A DNA stretch of 64,000 bases from Pseudomonas oryzihabitans (GTDB taxonomy: Bacteria; Pseudomonadota; Gammaproteobacteria; Pseudomonadales; Pseudomonadaceae). Made by a program: the position numbers and the translations under genes. This document shows positions 34,961 to 50,209 of the stretch, in pieces. Where the stretch lies: contig NZ_CP017024.1 of the NCBI RefSeq assembly GCF_014522265.1, positions 4,412,501 to 4,476,500 of the forward strand, written 5' to 3'. The notes below the pieces were generated by a model, which worked only from the letters and a program-made list of their open reading frames with translations, searched no databases and was not told the DNA's origin. Each line of letters starts with the position of its first letter. Positions within the stretch are counted from its first letter, which is position 1.

Positions 34961-35066
34961 CAGCCACCACAGGCCCTCACGGGCAGGCTGAGCCAGGATT
35001 GCCAACAGTTGCCTTTCTGTCCGTCTCCCGGCACGGTGATCCGCCCACTCGATCGGGACGCTCACC

Positions 35067-35483
35067 TTGACCCCTACCCTGCACATCGCCGCCGCCATCC
35101 TCCTGAACGACCGCCAGCAGGTGCTGCTGGTGCGCAAGCGGGGCACCACCGCCTTCATGCAACCGGGTGGCAAGGTGGATCCGGGGGAGCAACCCCTGGA
35201 GGCGCTGATCCGCGAGTTGGAGGAAGAGCTTGGCCTGGTCATCACGACAGAGGCTGCGACCTTTCTCGGCAACTACCAGGCGCCGGCCGCCAATGAACCC
35301 GGTTTCAGGGTCGATTGCGCGCTGTATCAGGTAGCCATGGGCGCGGAAGTCCAGGCGGTGCCTGCCGCCGAAATCGAAGAGGCGGTGTGGATAGCCGTAG
35401 ACGAACCCGGCGATCTGCCGCTGGCGCCCCTGACCCGCGACGTGATTCTTCCACTGCTGAGGCGGCGACTGCTGCACCCTTAG
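35067..35483 (+). CDS. NUDIX hydrolase
   Basis: A 138-residue protein with a perfect Nudix box, G35 to L57 (GKVDPGEQP then REL.EELGL: Gx5Ex7REUxEExGU). It hydrolyses a nucleoside diphosphate linked to another group; MutT-like size, substrate unknown. The conserved N-terminal VRKRGTTAFMQPGGK segment reappears, decayed, at 40771-41035. The neighbours do not suggest a pathway. Confidence 0.9.
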   Translation: MTPTLHIAAAILLNDRQQVLLVRKRGTTAFMQPGGKVDPGEQPLEALIRELEEELGLVITTEAATFLGNYQAPAANEPGFRVDCALYQVAMGAEVQAVPAAEIEEAVWIAVDEPGDLPLAPLTRDVILPLLRRRLLHP

Positions 35484-40770: not shown

Positions 40771-41035
40771 GTGACATTCGTCATCCGCATCACCGCTGTC
40801 TCCCTCGAACGAACACTAACAATTGCTGTTAGTTCGCGAGCTCGGTACCACCGCCTTCATGTAGCTCGGCGGCAAGGGAGATCACGGCGAGCAGCTGCTG
40901 GAGGTGCTGATAAGGGACCTGAACGAACAGCCGGGCTGGTCTTGGCACCGGAGGCGGTGACCTTCACTAGCCAATACGGGACGCTAGCGGCCAAGGAGCC
41001 GGGCTGCACCGTTGATTGCGCGCTATATTGAGTTG
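40771..41035 (+). pseudogene. decayed NUDIX hydrolase copy
   Basis: Read across frames, this stretch gives VIRITAVSL, LLLVRELGTTAFM, an in-frame TAG, LGGKGDHGEQLLEVLIRDL, a frame change near 40930, GLVLAPEAVTF and KEPGCTVDCALY then TGA. Each piece lines up in order with the intact NUDIX protein at 35067-35483 (LLVRKRGTTAFM, PGGKVDPGEQPLEALIREL, EPGFRVDCALY). At least two stops and two shifts exclude function, and unlike the other broken genes here this one shows many changes, so it is a true relic. It sits at the left edge of the island. Confidence 0.85.
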
Positions 41036-41198: not shown

Positions 41199-42104
41199 AT
41201 GGATAATGTATCTTACAAAACTCTGCTAGATGAGACCCCGGAATACGCCCTAAAAGTAAAACAATACGCAAAGCTATTAATCGACCAAAAGATTTGGGAC
41301 TCGATATCTCACAGCAGCCTAGAGAGCTGGCTAAATAACTTCAAAAGCCAGGAAGAAGAGTTAATAGCAGCACTTCTTCTTGACGGGCTAGTCTATCGAT
41401 CAGCGCAACAGACTACATCATTGCTCATCGCCGCGCTTGAATGTGCACTGCCATTCGCCGTCTACAACACTCCAGACGCAATCATTTCTGGCCTAGATTT
41501 TATAAAAATTTTTAGTTCCAAGACAATTGACAATTCTATAAAAATAGTACCAGTCATACGCGATGCGGACCCGCCCACCAAAAGTGGGCCATCGATTGCA
41601 AGGATGTATCGTCGACAGCTGGGAATAAATGACGACTACATGATATGGCCTTGGCTTATAGACAGCAACGTAAAGGCAGGAGTCAAAACTATAGTATTCA
41701 TTGATGACGTATTGGCCACAGGAAACCAAGCATCAGATTTTCTAAAAGGACTTAAACTTGAAAGATATCCTGAGGTAGATTTTTCATACATACCACTATT
41801 GGCGCACGAAGACGGAATAAATAAACTTATAAAAGATCATCCCAAAATAAAAGTAAGTGCAGTGGAAGTAATTGACAATACAAATTGTTTTTTTAAAATT
41901 GAAAAAATGGCACAAATAGGCGACCTAGAGGATCTATACTTATCTGTCTCAAAAAAACATTTGAACAAAAGACTTTACAAGGGCATGGCCAAAGGCTACA
42001 AAGATTTAGCTCTGACTTTTTCTTATTACCATGCGACCCCAAATGCCAGCCTACCTCTTTACTGGTATGAAAGCGAAACCTTTAGCCCTCTAGTTAGGAG
42101 GTAG
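41199..42104 (+). CDS. phosphoribosyltransferase-like protein, island gene 1
   Basis: A 301-residue soluble protein. Residues 165-177 read IVFIDDVLATGNQ, an exact PRPP-binding loop of type-I phosphoribosyltransferases (two acidic residues Asp169-Asp170, then Thr174-Gly175). The hydrophobic strands before it fit the same Rossmann-like core, but the flanking helical regions match no nucleotide-salvage enzyme I recognise. It resembles the PRTase-like proteins predicted in bacterial conflict systems beside ORC/CDC6-like ATPases (from memory, unverified). Very AT-rich, unlike the host genes. The next ATG is 2 bases after its stop, with TAGGAGG in its last codons. Confidence 0.8.
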   Translation: MDNVSYKTLLDETPEYALKVKQYAKLLIDQKIWDSISHSSLESWLNNFKSQEEELIAALLLDGLVYRSAQQTTSLLIAALECALPFAVYNTPDAIISGLDFIKIFSSKTIDNSIKIVPVIRDADPPTKSGPSIARMYRRQLGINDDYMIWPWLIDSNVKAGVKTIVFIDDVLATGNQASDFLKGLKLERYPEVDFSYIPLLAHEDGINKLIKDHPKIKVSAVEVIDNTNCFFKIEKMAQIGDLEDLYLSVSKKHLNKRLYKGMAKGYKDLALTFSYYHATPNASLPLYWYESETFSPLVRR

Positions 42105-42106
42105 CA

Positions 42107-44101
42107 ATGCAAAACGTCGCCAATGAAATATCACAAGTAAAGCACTCTTTAACCAAAAACAGATCCGAGCACTTAGGAAAAGATGTTTGGAGCGATTTTG
42201 TAATACCACGTTTTTTTAGAAAAGTTGATTTAATCTCAACAATGCCAACTAGGTTGGAAGGAGGCAGAGGCAGCGGAAAAACGATGCTTTTACGCTACCT
42301 ATCGTATAACAGTCAATTTTCACCTAACAGATCAGATATCCCTGATGACGCTACAGATCGTATCGGCCTATACTGGAAAGCTGACACGCAATTTCTACGT
42401 CTTATGCAGAAGCGAGGTCTTGATAACGAATCATGGCTTCCAGTATTTGACCATTACTTAAACTTAAAACTTAGCCTGGAAGTCCTATCAAGCATAATAG
42501 CAATCTCGGAAAGCAGTTATAGAAAAATTGACTTTCACCATATAGAATCATCATATCTAGAAGGGATAGAAGATTTTGGATTTCAAAGCAAAAAATTCAG
42601 AGCCGTCGCGCGGGAGATAAATTCCAGAATAGTAAAAACAGAACTCGCGATTCAAAACATTCACGGCATTGATAGACTAGAGAAACTTCCGATCTCATTT
42701 TTACGCTTCATCGTAAGCAGTGTCATATCTATTTTCCCATGCTTGAAAGATACAGTTTACTCAGTCTATATAGACGAATACGAAAATTTACTAGATTACC
42801 AACAGAGGGTAATCAACACCTTGATCAAGGGCTCCGAGCCCCCACTAATATTCAACATCGCCATAAAACTTAATGGCATGTCTGAGACGCTTACTCTCAG
42901 CGATGAAAAGCTTGAAAATAGAGCTGACTATACAATAGTAAATTTAGACAAGCTAATTAATGAAAACAGCTTCGAAATTTTTGTGGCAGAAATCTTTTTG
43001 AAGAAACTGACTGAAGCGTCGCCTTCTATCGCCAAAGATCTAAAAATAGATTTATCCGGATGCTCTGACGCCAGCCAACTAGATAAAAGACACACAGTTA
43101 AGCACGAGGAAAATTGCCGAATTCTGATTGAGAAAATCTTCCCAGGGAGAACTCATCAAGATCTAGCCGATGAAATATTTTCAACACCCAGATATTTCAA
43201 CAAAGTAGTTACAGAGATTGAGCGAGCTCTCACGCAAAAATCAACCAAGCATTTAACCGCAAATGACTTTATTCTTTATAACCATAAAAAAGCAACTGTT
43301 GTATGCACCTCGCTACTTTACCGAAAAAACCTTACGCCAGATCAGGTGCTAGCAGAGCTTGAAAAACTTAAATCAGGAGAAGCAAATAAATTTAACAACC
43401 AGACAGATTGGGAGCATAACAATTTCATTGGATGCTACTTAAGAATAATACGCGCTAACAAAGCGAGCAGTACTTTTTATTCTGGATTTGACGTTTACTC
43501 TGCCCTATCAGGCGGGAATGTTCGGCATTTCCTAGAGCTGTGCAAAAGCGCCTTCTCACTAATCGACGACAGTGCACTTTCCGAAAGTTTTACCGTTGAT
43601 AGAAAACTCCAACATTTAGCTGCAAGAAATACCAGCGACGAACTAATTAAAGAAATTCATCGCTTTACGCCGCTTGGCTCACAACTCAGCAACTTTGTCA
43701 AAGCAATTGGTAAAATTTTTCAGCTATGCCAGGATAGAGACACTCAGAGTGAGACCGAAGTTACTCACTTTGGAATAAAAGAAGAAATATCCCCTTTAAC
43801 AGAAGAAGATGACCGGTTCTTTAAAGAGGCAGAAAAATGGGGGGTTCTCAAGGCAATTGAGTCCACAAAGAACAAATCTTCAGCGTCAGCAGCTACATAC
43901 GATTATGTTTTAAACCCTATTTATGCACCTTTTTTCTTGATTAGTTATAGAAAAGGTAGAAAAATAGAAATAGAAGCCTCCGCGCTTCGAAAGATGTACA
44001 TAAGTGGCGAGGCTGCTATAAATAATGATTTAAGAAGGAGCCTCCGTCTGTGGGGAGCTGAAGAGCCCACAGACTCTCCTAAACAGGCCACACTTCTATG
44101 A
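42107..44101 (+). CDS. ORC/CDC6-type AAA ATPase, island gene 2
   Basis: A 664-residue protein. Walker A is GGRGSGKT (52-59) and Walker B is VYIDEYENL (Asp223-Glu224), followed by a sensor-like strand (FNIAIKLNG). A long helical insert separates the two, and the C-terminal 250 residues are helical with a probable winged helix (EEDDRFFKEAEKWGVLKAI). This fits the ORC/CDC6-like ATPases of predicted defence operons. It is likely the nucleotide-driven sensor or loader of the system. It overlaps the next gene by ATGA (44098-44101), so the two are translationally coupled. Confidence 0.82.
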   Translation: MQNVANEISQVKHSLTKNRSEHLGKDVWSDFVIPRFFRKVDLISTMPTRLEGGRGSGKTMLLRYLSYNSQFSPNRSDIPDDATDRIGLYWKADTQFLRLMQKRGLDNESWLPVFDHYLNLKLSLEVLSSIIAISESSYRKIDFHHIESSYLEGIEDFGFQSKKFRAVAREINSRIVKTELAIQNIHGIDRLEKLPISFLRFIVSSVISIFPCLKDTVYSVYIDEYENLLDYQQRVINTLIKGSEPPLIFNIAIKLNGMSETLTLSDEKLENRADYTIVNLDKLINENSFEIFVAEIFLKKLTEASPSIAKDLKIDLSGCSDASQLDKRHTVKHEENCRILIEKIFPGRTHQDLADEIFSTPRYFNKVVTEIERALTQKSTKHLTANDFILYNHKKATVVCTSLLYRKNLTPDQVLAELEKLKSGEANKFNNQTDWEHNNFIGCYLRIIRANKASSTFYSGFDVYSALSGGNVRHFLELCKSAFSLIDDSALSESFTVDRKLQHLAARNTSDELIKEIHRFTPLGSQLSNFVKAIGKIFQLCQDRDTQSETEVTHFGIKEEISPLTEEDDRFFKEAEKWGVLKAIESTKNKSSASAATYDYVLNPIYAPFFLISYRKGRKIEIEASALRKMYISGEAAINNDLRRSLRLWGAEEPTDSPKQATLL

Positions 44102-44999
44102 TCGAAGTAAAATCTACGTTTAGTCTTGAACCGTATTCATTTCCATTTGAATTTTCGCACGGAATATTTGGGACAGCTATTGACTCTCGATCAGAGTACT
44201 CAGTCGACTTTGTAAGACACCAGTGCGCACTGACGTTGGCAATACAATATCGCCAAGAGTCATTGGATATCATGATAAATAACGTTCCAGTTGAGTGCCA
44301 CCTATTACCCGAATACGTAAATCAACATGCCTTCACCTCTGTACTGATCGACTCTACGAGCTTAGACATTCCCGAACTGGCGTTGATATTAAAAGCTCTT
44401 CATCAATTCAGCGGACTACGCGTTATTGTTTTATATGTGGAGCCATTTGAGTATACTTCTGGTGAAACCAGCGCTCTTAACCAAGAAGAATTCTCTCTTT
44501 CAGAAGAGATATCTGGGTTTGAAGGTGCTGGCATACCTACAATATCGATGCCCGTCGATAACGACCTGCTCAGACGTTTTATCTTCTTTGTAGGTTTTGA
44601 AGGCGGCCGACTGCAGAGTGCGATCGAGACATATGATATTTCTAGCGAAGAGGCTAGAATTTTCTTTGGACTTCCTGCTTTTAAGCCTGGATGGGAAACC
44701 AAATCAATTCGCCGCAATCTGCAATCACTAACTGACCAGTCATTTAGTGGACGAATTTTTTACTGCAGTGCGAGCAGTTGTACAGATGCATTAAGATCAC
44801 TACACAAAGTAAAATCAAATGAACCCGGCACAATAAACTATGTTATCCCCTAGGTACAAAACCTAACTCGCTTGCGGCAATATTGTTCGCATTAGAAAAC
44901 CAAAATTCTGTTCGCATACTTTACGATCAGCCAAGTAAAAAGCCTGGTCGTAGCAAAGGCATAGGGCGCCGCCACTACTACCATTACTTGGTACCATAA
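44098..44999 (+). pseudogene. unknown island protein 3, interrupted by one missing base
   Basis: The first frame (251 residues) ends NEPGTINYVIP at TAG 44851-44853. Directly beyond the C4 run at 44847-44850 the next frame reads LGTKPNSLAAILFALENQN, then SVRILYDQPSKKPGRSKGIG and YYHYLVP, stopping at 44997-44999, 2 bases before the next ATG. One extra C joins them into a 300-residue protein. Alternating strands and helices and the GTKPNSLAA loop suggest a Rossmann-like nucleotide-binding domain, faintly like the GTKP loop of CARF proteins, but no family is recognised. Break possibly artefactual. Confidence 0.75.
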
Positions 45000-45001
45000 T
45001 A

Positions 45002-46278
45002 ATGCACTTTCACAAAACCCCATACGAAGTTGTCAGATTAGCTAAAAAACATGTCCCTAAAACGGCGAGAATAATTTTAGAGCCGGCTGTGGGTGAAGGT
45101 GCGCTTCTACAGGCTTTATATCCCTTTCAACTAAACGAAAATTTAGCCCTTGTGGACATTGATAGCCGTAGGTTGGATGCTATTAAGCTGATTCACCCTG
45201 AGCTATCTGCGATAAATGCTGATTTCACTAATTGGGCTCTTGAAAATAGTAAAAATCGCTTCGACCTAATCATTACTAATCCACCTTTTTCAGGCAGGGC
45301 GGAAAACTGGAAGGATTTAGGGGATCGAAAGGCACCTATAGAATATCTTTTTTTTAAAAAATGCATTGAGCTTTTGCTACCAAATGGAACTTTAATAGCC
45401 ATTGTCCCAGACACGATAGTTAACTCTGTTCGACTACAAACAGAGCGGTTCTGGGTGCTTTCTCAAGGTGCAATCACGTTTGCCTACCAATTGCCCAAGA
45501 AAATTTTTGACAAAATTGAGGGGCATTTTATTTATTAGTTTTTAAAAAAGGAGTACGCCAAAAAAATGTAAAGCTAAGAAATCTCTCGGGAGACTCAGAC
45601 ATAAATGTTTCTCTTGACGAGCTTTCGTCATCAGGCTACAGACTCGATCACTCCTACTATAGAAGTAAGTACAAATTTTCACGCCTCACCCCCAAGTCAT
45701 CACTTCCACTATCAAGCTTTTGCCATATAACCAGAGGCCCCATAAGACAAAACTACAAAGAACTGGGAAACTTTCACTCCAACTCATTCATTTCTAATTT
45801 TTGGACAAATTACTCTAATCACAGAAACGATTTTTGCATTGCAGTTAAGCGCGTGTCCAGAAATGCACATTTTTCATTTGGTCTATTTCCTACCGAGGAC
45901 ATCCACAAATCGACAGACTGCATCCTATTTATCAAAACAAGACAAGATCTGGTGCTCAAAACTCTATTTTTCCTGAGAACAACCCTAACTAATAAAGATG
46001 GCGAGCATTTGCTACTGAAAGGAGCCGGCGCCAAATTCATCAAAGTTACGGATTTAAAAAATTTAGCGTATTTCGATTTGGCTGAGCAATATCCTACACA
46101 TTTTCAGAACTATATTTTTGCATACAAAACCAAAGATATTTCTACATGCCTGGACATTGAGAAAAACATACACTACGAACTCGCATGGGGTAAAAAAATT
46201 ACCTGCCTAAAAAGCTTCACCCACAGTGAGAAAATGGAAAGCACTTCAGAGCCGAGTACTTTAATAAGTCATCTCTGA
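45002..46278 (+). pseudogene. N6-adenine DNA methyltransferase, island gene 4, interrupted by one missing base
   Basis: The N-terminal 178 residues hold SAM motif I ILEPAVGEGA (25-34), motif IV TNPPF (92-96) and the usual following strands: an N6-adenine methyltransferase of the Eco57I/TaqI-like (gamma) layout. At the G4 run 45520-45523 the frame changes; one extra G gives IEGAFYLLVFKKGVRQKN and continues through LSSFCHITRGPIRQNY, a likely target-recognition domain, to the stop at 46278: 425 residues in all. The C-terminal half is seen directly in the other frame. No restriction nuclease gene is adjacent. Likely marks host DNA or is an effector part of the system. Confidence 0.8.
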
Positions 46279-46554
46279 CGGCTGATTCTTGGCAGCTTTG
46301 TCTACCTATTTTTTTAGCCTTGAGCTCGCATACACTTGTTCCTGCATTGCTATAGAAGCCACGAAACGTGTTTTACTCACTTTTTATGAGCGGGCTCCGT
46401 TGACTGGTCTAGTTCATCTAGCATTTTACAGCGATGCCACACAGATCAGACTCCGTATCCATAGTAACCACCCAGCACCCCAGGCGTGCCCTCCTCCCCC
46501 TCGCCCGCTACAATGCGCGCCTTGCCGTGCCACGCCTGATCGAGAAGAACCGCC
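46279..46554. other. right edge of the AT-rich island
   Basis: Base composition returns to GC-rich at about 46430-46480. No direct repeat, tRNA or integrase marks the border. T-rich tracts near 46310 may end island transcription, but no convincing hairpin precedes them. Confidence 0.5.
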
Positions 46555-48570: not shown

Positions 48571-49064
48571 GCCCGGCAAGGCGCTCGGGACTGATCTGCA
48601 CCGAGGTCTCGCACACCAGGTAATCACCCCCGGGGCCAGGCGGCTGGGACGCTGTCGGTCACCCGGTCGGGCCGCCACTTGCTGCTTCCCTGCGCGCGAC
48701 CGGCGCTCGATCCTCCCGCCTGGCCCTCTCCTTTACCACCTGCCGTCGAGGGTGGGGGAGCCCACTTTTTGTCAGCTTGGCACCGCCCGCCGCAACCACC
48801 GGGCCAGAGGCGCTCGCGCTTGCTAGCCGATTGATCGGCACGCGCCGAACGGTCCCGAACCCTGAAAAAAAGTGCACGGCACCGCCGCAATGGACTCCAA
48901 CCTGGCTGATGCCTGCCGCGGTTTCCTGGCTGAATGGCCGAGCCGGCGGACGGCGTCCTGTGTTCCAGTTGACCAAGAGCGCGCTGGGATAAAACGAGTC
49001 GCGACCGCGCCTGCGCGGCCGAGTCGTGGCGATTTCTGAACCGGCTAGAAGACCCCTTTGCTTT
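48571..49064. other. 494-base intergenic region, no gene seen
   Basis: Contains a near-palindrome GCCGATTGATCGGC around 48825-48838 and a GC-rich hairpin-forming stretch around 48990-49025 (GAGTCG.CGACCGCGCC with CGCGGCCGAGTCG) just before the channel gene. Long apparent open frames on the minus strand have host-antisense character and no family match. No RNA gene recognised. Confidence 0.45.
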
Positions 49065-50209
49065 ATGGATCTCGGATTTTTCAACACCCTGCTATCGACC
49101 AGTCTGCTCGGCATCTCGCTGGCCAACTGGCTCGCCATGCTGTGCATCATCCTGCTCAGCTTCACCCTCGCCCGCACCATCATCGGCTTCGTCCTGAGAA
49201 ATCTGCGGACCCGCGCCGAGAAACCGGGTGCCCATGTCAGCCATATCGCCATCCAGGTGCTCTCCAGCACCAGTAATACCCTGCTGTTGCTGGCCGCCAT
49301 CCTGATCGGCGTGGGAATACTGGATCTCCCGAGCGCTGGCTGACGCGGGTCAGCAGCCTCTGGTTCGTGGTGGCGGCCTTGCAGGCCGGGCTGTGGGCCA
49401 ACCGGGCGGTGGCCCTGGCGCTGCACCACTACTTCGTCAAGCACAGCCAGGCGGACGTCTACCAGGGCAGCGCCCTGGCCACCCTGTCACTCTGGGGCGC
49501 CAAGGTGCTGCTCTGGGCCGTGGTCGGCCTGGCGATGCTGTCCAATCTCGGCGTGAACATCACCGCCTTCGTCGCCAGCCTCGGCGTGGGCGGCATCGCC
49601 ATCGCCCTGGCGGTGCAGAACATCCTCGGCGATGTGTTCGCCTCCCTCTCCATCGCGGTGGACAAGCCCTTCGAAGTGGGCGACTTCATCGTCGTCGGCT
49701 CGCTGGCGGGCACCGTCGAGCACGTGGGCCTGAAGACCACCCGGATCAGAAGTCTGGGCGGCGAACAGATCGTCATGGCGAACGCCGAGATGATCGGCAG
49801 CACCATCCAGAACTACAAGAAGCTGCAGGAGCGTCGCATCGTCTTCAAATTCGGCCTGACCTATGCCAGCCAGCCGAAGCAGATCAGGCAGGTGACTGCC
49901 TCCCTGAAAGACATCATTCAACGGCAGGACAAGACGCGCTTTGACCGGGCTCATCTGCTGGCCTTCGGCGACAGCTCGCTGGACTTCGAGGTTGTCTACA
50001 TCGTTCTGGATGCCAGCTACAACCTGTACATGGACATCCAGCAGGCGATCAATCTGGAGATGATGGAAGCCTTCGCCAAAATCGGCGTGCGCTTCGCCCT
50101 CTCCAGCAGAAGCCTGTACGTCGAATCCCTGCCCGGGGACTTCATGGCCGAGCGGGATCGGCAGGAAGAGAATGAGTCGGTTGGCCAGCACCGGCCAGTG
50201 ATCCAGTAG
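49065..50209 (+). pseudogene. MscS-type mechanosensitive channel, interrupted by one missing base
   Basis: The first frame runs from ATG 49065 through two membrane helices to GILDLP, then stops. At the C run 49328-49330 the next frame takes over with ERWLTRVSSLWFVVAALQAG and carries the MscS pore helix and beta domain: ITAFVASLGVGGIAIALAVQ, VDKPFEVGDFIVVG, TTRIRSLGGEQIVMAN. One extra C gives about 381 residues, fitting small-conductance channels with an extra helix pair (YnaI/YbdG-like). It would open under membrane tension. Break possibly artefactual. Confidence 0.82.

What the first reader, a model, noticed from the sequence alone, without database searches (positions are those of the whole stretch)
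41199..46278. Four-gene AT-rich conflict operon: PRTase-like + ORC/CDC6 ATPase + unknown + N6-adenine methyltransferase
Seen: four genes on one strand, with spacings of 2 bases, a 4-base ATGA overlap and 2 bases, and markedly AT-rich codons against a GC-rich chromosome. Motifs seen: PRPP loop, Walker A/B, SAM motif I and NPPF. Known: PRTase-like proteins next to ORC/CDC6-like ATPases have been predicted in bacterial conflict systems (recalled, not checked). Inferred: an ATPase sensor, a PRPP-using effector or signal enzyme, a nucleotide-binding partner and a methylase for self/non-self marking. I recognise no named defence system with these four parts.
Basis: partly seen in the sequence, partly recalled or inferred. 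Interest (0 to 1): 0.88.

Follow-up and report, generated by a model that had tools for sequence, protein, structure and literature searches.

The report
Putative CARF–PRTase–methylase defence system
A conserved four-gene bacterial module, most likely an anti-phage system, joins a DNA methylase, an origin-recognition-like ATPase, a nucleotide-receptor (CARF) protein and a toxin-like enzyme; it recurs in several bacterial phyla, I found no laboratory test of it, and two of its genes are frame-broken in this genome.

Summary
In detail: four same-strand genes at 41199-46278, 39.9% GC in a 66.1% GC window; genes 3 and 4 each carry one frame break. Gene 1 is PRTase-CE (homologous to retron III-A effectors), gene 2 an ORC-CDC6-like AAA+ ATPase, gene 4 an N6-adenine DNA methylase. 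The 'unknown' gene 3 is a CARF protein (PADLOC CARF6; the model of an intact relative has CRISPR CARF proteins as its first 19 structural matches).

The set is one system: all four families sit together in 83 of 90 related loci plus the window, and six of the other seven are cut by contig ends. Hosts fall in eight phyla; plasmids carry it. PRTase-ATPase-CARF is a fixed core; the methylase changes position (at least 8 switches) and evolves out of step. In distant relatives the ATPase-CARF pair stays while the partner changes (HD-CE, kinase). At the same site, same-genus genomes hold other genes, some defence-like.

No Csm1-type Cas10 passed the cut-off in 50 carriers, so the CARF ligand is open. 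Best reading: methylation-guarded abortive infection with an ATPase-CARF switch and a nucleotide-attacking PRTase. The families were named before; two likely sources for the assembled system could not be read.

The parts
41199..42104 (+). PRTase-CE effector (301 aa); PRPP loop about 41691-41732
   Evidence: Pfam PF24390 E 5.4e-48; PADLOC retron PRTase_III-A 5.2e-22 over residues 38-301; Ser129, Asp169, Asp170 and Gln177 invariant in 41 aligned sequences
42107..44101 (+). ORC-CDC6-like AAA+ ATPase (664 aa); Walker A 42260-42283, Walker B about 42761-42787
44098..44999 (+). CARF6 receptor gene, frame-broken near 44847-44850; the GTKP motif (44853-44864) lies in the second frame
   Evidence: PADLOC CARF6 PDLC01920 E 6.7e-75 on the first piece; both pieces match intact relatives; model of the L114 relative is CARF-like
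45002..46278 (+). N6-adenine DNA methylase with TRD-like C-terminal half, frame-broken near 45520-45550; NPPF at 45278-45289
   Evidence: Pfam Eco57I 9.2e-11 and N6_Mtase 1.5e-6 on the first piece; family profile matches EcoR124II M protein 8.3e-24, BseCI and TaqI
46462..46496 (.). Right edge of the inserted AT-rich segment; DNA homology to 9 same-genus genomes starts here
   Evidence: blastn against relatives L136-L144

Best explanation
A methylation-linked, receptor-gated abortive-infection system. Step 1 (inferred): the methylase marks one sequence of the host's own DNA with N6-methyladenine. Step 2 (inferred): the ORC/CDC6-like ATPase assembles on DNA and, with the CARF protein as ligand-gated partner, distinguishes an invaded cell from a healthy one; the signal could be unmethylated or replicating foreign DNA, a nucleotide bound by the CARF pocket, or both together. 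Step 3 (inferred): the complex releases or activates the PRTase, which attacks free nucleotides or NAD-like substrates with PRPP-type chemistry and stops growth before phage release. Shown here: domain identities, the fixed core order, linkage of the four families among close relatives, separate evolution of the methylase, partner exchange in distant relatives, and insertion at a site that holds other, partly defence-like, genes in sister genomes. Not shown: any activity, the ligand, or phage protection. The copy in this genome may be inactive unless its two frame breaks are sequencing errors.
For: Four families together in 83 of 90 loci plus the window. PRTase homologous to retron III-A PRTases in 41 of 41 family members scanned. 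CARF fold, probably in tandem. ORC/Cdc6 heads the ATPase's structural list, followed among others by TnsC, MuB and clamp loaders. Over 80 loci ATPase identity tracks CARF (Spearman 0.77) and PRTase (0.72) but the methylase only at 0.30-0.38, with at least 8 changes of methylase position on a quick tree. Partner exchange beside a constant ATPase-CARF pair: HD-CE in L122, kinase-ATPase fusions in L123 and L124. At the same chromosomal site other genomes of the genus hold a type II methylase plus HSP90-like ATPase (L166), or a NERD helicase (L167). 151 plasmid records carry the ATPase, 136 predicted conjugative. A small HTH-like gene is divergent from the methylase in 13 loci, as in restriction systems with controller genes (comparison recalled).
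Against: No experiment shows defence. Of 100 flanking ORFs scanned, the matches were a mixture of defence and ordinary genes, without a control set. The loci were chosen by similarity to the ATPase, and the best 80 kept, so tight linkage among them is partly expected. CARF and methylase are frame-broken in this genome. No gene of the operon is an obvious maker of a CARF ligand. Three P-loop-only distant matches (L126-L128) had no CARF neighbour, and no methylase of this family was seen in L122, L124 and L125 (L125 is a 3.6-kb contig). Only 2 of 398 phylum genomes carried the PRTase-CARF set, and no close DNA match was found in 5,426 complete E. coli genomes (near mode only).
Confidence: 0.55

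Rival explanations
1. Addiction module: the methylase protects the host and the ATPase-CARF-PRTase core kills cells that lose it, so the unit mainly stabilises plasmids and islands. Phage resistance would be a by-product.
For: On many plasmids, 136 of 151 records predicted conjugative; self-contained unit; divergent HTH-like gene beside the methylase in 13 loci.
Against: Four different parts with a dedicated receptor are more than a plain addiction pair needs; at least six loci lie on contigs of over 1 Mb (L069, L072, L075, L091, L094, L101), so it is not confined to plasmids; HD-CE takes the PRTase's place in L122.
Confidence: 0.2
2. The CARF protein is an off-switch: it destroys a nucleotide signal, as ring nucleases do, and so restrains the ATPase-PRTase toxin rather than triggering it.
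Against: A tandem CARF without a further catalytic domain fits a receptor equally well; no resident Csm1 or SMODS synthase was found in this genome whose product would need destroying.
Confidence: 0.15
3. A housekeeping or regulatory operon acting on nucleotide pools or DNA replication, unrelated to defence.
For: ORC/CDC6 and PRTase folds also have ordinary roles; dUTPase_2-type neighbours occur in six loci.
Against: Sporadic: 2 of 398 phylum genomes carry PRTase and CARF together; on plasmids; low-GC insert; variable, partly defence-like cargo at the same site.
Confidence: 0.06

Closest known systems
Predicted PRTase-CE / ORC-CDC6-like conflict systems (Pfam PF24390, PF24389; probably Nicastro, Burroughs, Iyer and Aravind, NAR 2023, gkad879)
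   Same: Both protein families and, through HD-CE (PF24391), the idea of exchangeable nucleotide-attacking effectors (content recalled).
   Different: I could not read that paper (only its title seen in a reference list). Whether it describes the CARF gene, the methylase and this four-gene order is unknown to me.
CARF6 clade of CARF proteins (PADLOC models; classification recalled from Makarova et al., NAR 2020, not held)
   Same: Gene 3 belongs to it by sequence; PADLOC's CARF6 kinase-AAA model also matches the CARF proteins of the kinase variants L123 and L124.
   Different: The PADLOC hits seen name no system joining CARF6 with PRTase, ORC-like ATPase and methylase.
Kinase-AAA+-CARF proteins of Makarova et al. 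2014 (PMC4012209, passages read)
   Same: AAA+ ATPase with an arginine inside the P-loop, joined to CARF; here GxRGxGKT has an invariant Arg54. That this is one family is my inference.
   Different: There a single fused protein with kinase; here separate genes, PRTase effector and methylase.
Retron type III-A
   Same: Homologous PRTase (41 of 41 family members match).
   Different: No reverse transcriptase among the four genes; ATPase-CARF takes the sensor place.
Other PRTase-containing anti-phage systems: DprA-PRTase/ShosTA (PMC9122126, PMC11878078, passages read); a PRTase among validated systems of DefensePredictor (PMC13092281, one figure-legend passage read); NCBIfam DS32_1
   Same: A phosphoribosyltransferase as toxin or proposed effector.
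   Different: DS32_1 matches gene 1 only at E 0.0053, 16 bits against a cut-off of 250. I could not tell which genes accompany the DefensePredictor PRTase, so overlap with the present family is not excluded.
BREX and MADS
   Same: N6-adenine methylase plus AAA+ ATPase; BrxD is classed as ORC-Cdc6 (PMC12839542, abstract and passages read).
   Different: None of the four genes matched PglZ; a CARF receptor and PRTase are present instead.
Type III CRISPR ancillary CARF effectors and CBASS SAVED receptors
   Same: Receptor fold: Csm6, Can1, Can2, Card1, then weaker Cap4 and Cap5.
   Different: No Csm1 above cut-off in 50 carriers; SMODS above cut-off in 7 of 50, none in this genome.

Membership tests
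CARF superfamily (CARF6) | Sequence match to CARF6 models | tested here: met
   E 6.7e-75 for the window's first piece; 10 of 10 further proteins tested match, five of them from distant variants
CARF superfamily (CARF6) | CARF Rossmann fold | tested here: met
CARF superfamily (CARF6) | Binds a cyclic oligonucleotide | not testable with these tools
   Ligand unknown; GTKP lysine nearly invariant
Type III CRISPR ancillary protein | Genome encodes Cas10 (Csm1 model TIGR02578) | tested here: not met
   0 of 50 carrier genomes above the 170-bit cut-off, 5 with matches of 20-24 bits; own genome 0. Cmr2-type Cas10 was probed only with PF22335, whose hits look like GGDEF domains
CBASS | CD-NTase (SMODS) in the genome or operon | tested here: not met
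   No SMODS match in own genome; 7 of 50 carriers over cut-off. PF18144 may not cover every CD-NTase
PRTase-CE | Domain match and PRPP loop DDxxxTG | tested here: met
   E 5.4e-48; Asp169 and Asp170 invariant, Gly175 nearly so in 41 sequences
Retron type III-A | Reverse transcriptase and ncRNA next to the PRTase | tested here: not met
   No RT among the four genes; the ncRNA was not searched
ORC-CDC6-like AAA+ ATPase | Family match, Walker A and B, ORC/Cdc6 fold | tested here: met
Gamma-type N6-adenine DNA methylase | NPPF and motif I, homology to DNA methylases | tested here: met
   EcoR124II M 8.3e-24, BseCI 2.9e-23, TaqI 1.3e-21; Asn93-Pro94-Pro95 invariant in 30; the class name 'gamma' is recalled
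BREX | PglZ in the operon | tested here: not met
   No PglZ match among the four genes
Type II restriction-modification | Restriction nuclease partner | tested here: not met
   No nuclease domain matched in the four genes

The most novel reading that the evidence does not exclude
A nucleotide-signalling restriction system independent of CRISPR and CBASS: recognition of unmethylated DNA by the methylase-ATPase pair leads to a small nucleotide signal, made by a component of the operon or host, that the tandem CARF receptor reads before the PRTase fires.
Probability: 0.22. Interest if true: 0.88.

Novelty: new variant of a known kind. Interest (0 to 1): 0.62.

Why it matters
It would place a CARF receptor, best known from type III CRISPR, inside a restriction-like system without a known signal synthase, and so makes the question of what CRISPR-independent CARF proteins sense directly testable. 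It also shows an ATPase-CARF core that takes different partners (PRTase, HD, kinase) and different methylases, and it is carried on many conjugative plasmids, where it could affect phage resistance and plasmid compatibility.

Tried and rejected
Rejected: gene 3 as zinc-ribbon (Pfam PF15909, E 0.029, below cut-off). Rejected: BREX and retron membership, see tests. Cas10 search with PF22335 was uninformative: 29 of 50 genomes matched and 19 passed the cut-off, but with short matches of at most 38.5 bits that look like GGDEF domains, and E. coli rang in the controls. A profile of the CARF relatives found nothing among solved structures, and Foldseek ranked KaiC, SirB and sugar-binding proteins among the first rows for the CARF model, with CARF proteins from row 12 on; the CARF reading rests on PADLOC and on the VIA second look. 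Foldseek alone was weak for the ATPase. At the island edges there was no tRNA and no long direct repeat; the only pair across the island is 21 bases at 86%, inside GC-rich coding DNA. Flank survey: 100 ORFs of 180-1200 aa within 6 kb of the system, nearest first, out of 73 loci considered. PADLOC gave 140 families, of which 25 are shown: among them Qat, Mokosh, AbiEii, SoFic, type I and III restriction, with at most two members each; Pfam also gave metabolic genes; without a control set this is weak evidence. Ten of the 12 phylum genomes with a PRTase hit had weaker, longer relatives; one of these (L184) has a weak ORC-like neighbour. Quality check of the assembly: against three same-genus stretches, 18 ORFs matched in the window; 9 matched whole, and one of the other 9 showed a frame switch; the rest were shorter matches, three of them at the window end. 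No close DNA match in E. coli genomes; the only two phage records with the ATPase are the same Acinetobacter record type, which looks chromosomal. Literature: searches found no description of the four-gene set; the likely sources tried were not held.
Full report
Observation. The segment has 39.9% GC against 66.1% elsewhere in the window. Genes 1 and 2 are intact. Gene 3 breaks frame near 44847-44850 and gene 4 near 45520-45550. The parts on both sides of each break still resemble intact relatives (gene 3: 71% and 78%; gene 4: 67% and 52% identity to L114). A third gene outside the operon, split at 49026-49343 and 49367-50209, is one 381-aa frame in the single same-genus stretch compared that has it (L172). 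All three breaks shift the frame the same way, so sequencing or assembly error is a serious possibility, but I cannot exclude true decay.

One system. With L002, L032, L033 and L034, 90 loci were examined: 83 have all four families, as has the window. Of the other seven, L042, L057, L073, L079, L102 and L111 are cut by contig ends, and L120 has only a distant ATPase. Some loci are identical or near-copies (L032/L076, L070/L071, L069/L115, L058/L059, L036/L037, L002/L063). By record titles the hosts fall in eight phyla, mostly Pseudomonadota. Among plasmids 151 records hold the ATPase and 145 the CARF, 130 and 128 of them Klebsiella. In an even sample of 398 phylum genomes the system is rare: CARF matches in 3, strong PRTase matches in 2 of these; the ATPase lies beside the CARF in all 3.

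Core and exchangeable parts. PRTase-ATPase-CARF has this order in all 83 loci. In the 80 loci with full-length genes the methylase is downstream on the same strand (33), downstream on the opposite strand (26) or upstream (21), with at least 8 switches on a quick ATPase tree. Pairwise identities over 3160 pairs correlate at 0.77 (ATPase-CARF), 0.72 (ATPase-PRTase) and 0.60 (PRTase-CARF), but 0.17-0.38 with the two halves of the methylase; L068 and L065 share 69% of the ATPase but 26% of the methylase. Pairs are not independent and methylase alignments near 20% identity are noisy. I infer that target specificity lies in the methylase, as in type I or BREX systems, and that the core does not read a fixed sequence by itself.

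Distant relatives. Of 369 class genomes, 10 passed the ATPase cut-off. Stretches of eight were fetched. In five the gene directly after the ATPase is CARF6; in the three P-loop-only matches (L126-L128) it is not. The gene before, or fused to, the ATPase varies: HD-CE (L122, 7.3e-34); kinase fusions with an N6/N4 methylase-like gene before them (L123, L124); a ParA-like fusion with the methylase downstream and an unknown gene before it (L121). For L125 the contig is too short to tell. ATPase-CARF is therefore the likely switch and the rest are effectors or guards. A kinase-AAA+-CARF family with an arginine in the P-loop was reported in 2014 (PMC4012209, passages read); here Arg54 of GxRGxGKT is invariant in 37 sequences. 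That these are one family is my inference.

Surroundings. Of 12 other same-genus genomes, 9 have a close copy of the gene right of the island (94-99% identity), a U32-peptidase-like gene named by eye. DNA homology to these 9 begins at 46462-46496, while the DNA upstream differs. Four carry other cargo: L166 and L168 hold genes of matching lengths (443 and 694 aa), of which L166 was scanned: a type II methylase (2.4e-131) and an HSP90-like ATPase; L167 a NERD helicase (RTasNERD-Hel 4.4e-42); L165 a weak helicase match and a gene without match. Four others have a transporter-like gene, recognised by eye, and one (L143) DNA resembling other parts of the window. The site thus behaves like an insertion hotspot whose cargo is partly defence-like. 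A small HTH-like gene lies divergently beside the methylase in 13 loci (three tested, all with Pfam HTH matches below cut-off), a dUTPase_2-type gene is next to the system in 6 (two tested, both above cut-off), and a second weakly ORC-like ATPase with a partner gene is present in 5.

Signal. The own genome and 49 other carriers show no Csm1 above cut-off, five with weak matches, and SMODS is above cut-off in 7 of 50. The CARF ligand is therefore not explained by either standard synthase. Cmr2-type Cas10 was not cleanly tested.

Mechanism and novelty. The best reading is abortive infection guarded by methylation, switched by ATPase-CARF, executed by the PRTase. Other PRTases serve as toxins or proposed effectors in retrons and with DprA (PMC9122126, PMC12548924, PMC11878078, passages read). 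The families are named in Pfam and PADLOC, and Nicastro et al. 2023 (title seen in a reference list; content recalled) very probably discussed PRTase-CE with related partners. A PRTase also occurs among the validated systems of DefensePredictor (one legend passage), with partners I could not see. I found no named system with the four parts among PADLOC v2 or NCBIfam r20 hits or in the paper searches, but key papers were not readable. I therefore call it a new variant of a known kind.

Noticed in passing
window 49026-50209: A channel-like gene (named by eye) is split in two frames (49026-49343 and 49367-50209), while same-genus L172 has one 381-aa frame; it suggests sequencing errors in this assembly.
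   Followed up: partly
L034, L043, L044, L048, L064, L072: A dUTPase_2-type gene (Pfam PF08761 confirmed for L034 and L072) lies next to the system in six loci, perhaps a second nucleotide-acting part.
   Followed up: partly
L052, L075, L080, L089, L110: A second, weakly ORC-like ATPase of about 575 aa and a 280-330 aa partner (three tested, no Pfam match) sit beside the system in five loci.
   Followed up: partly
L055, L059, L061, L070, L078, L083, L084, L086, L089, L090, L092, L096, L099: A small HTH-like gene is divergent from the methylase in 13 loci, like controller genes of restriction systems (Pfam matches weak in the three tested).
   Followed up: partly
L165 340-2904: An 854-aa gene at the same insertion site in a relative matches nothing in PADLOC or Pfam at E 0.001; possible unknown defence gene.
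   Followed up: no
L034 (CAKLQF020000018.1): A record labelled Acinetobacter phage carries efp, kamA, cstA and a tRNA around the system and looks chromosomal.
   Followed up: no
window 40807-41028: A short stretch left of the operon resembles DNA upstream of the peptidase-like gene in relative L143, which also resembles window 35009-35459; origin unclear.
   Followed up: no
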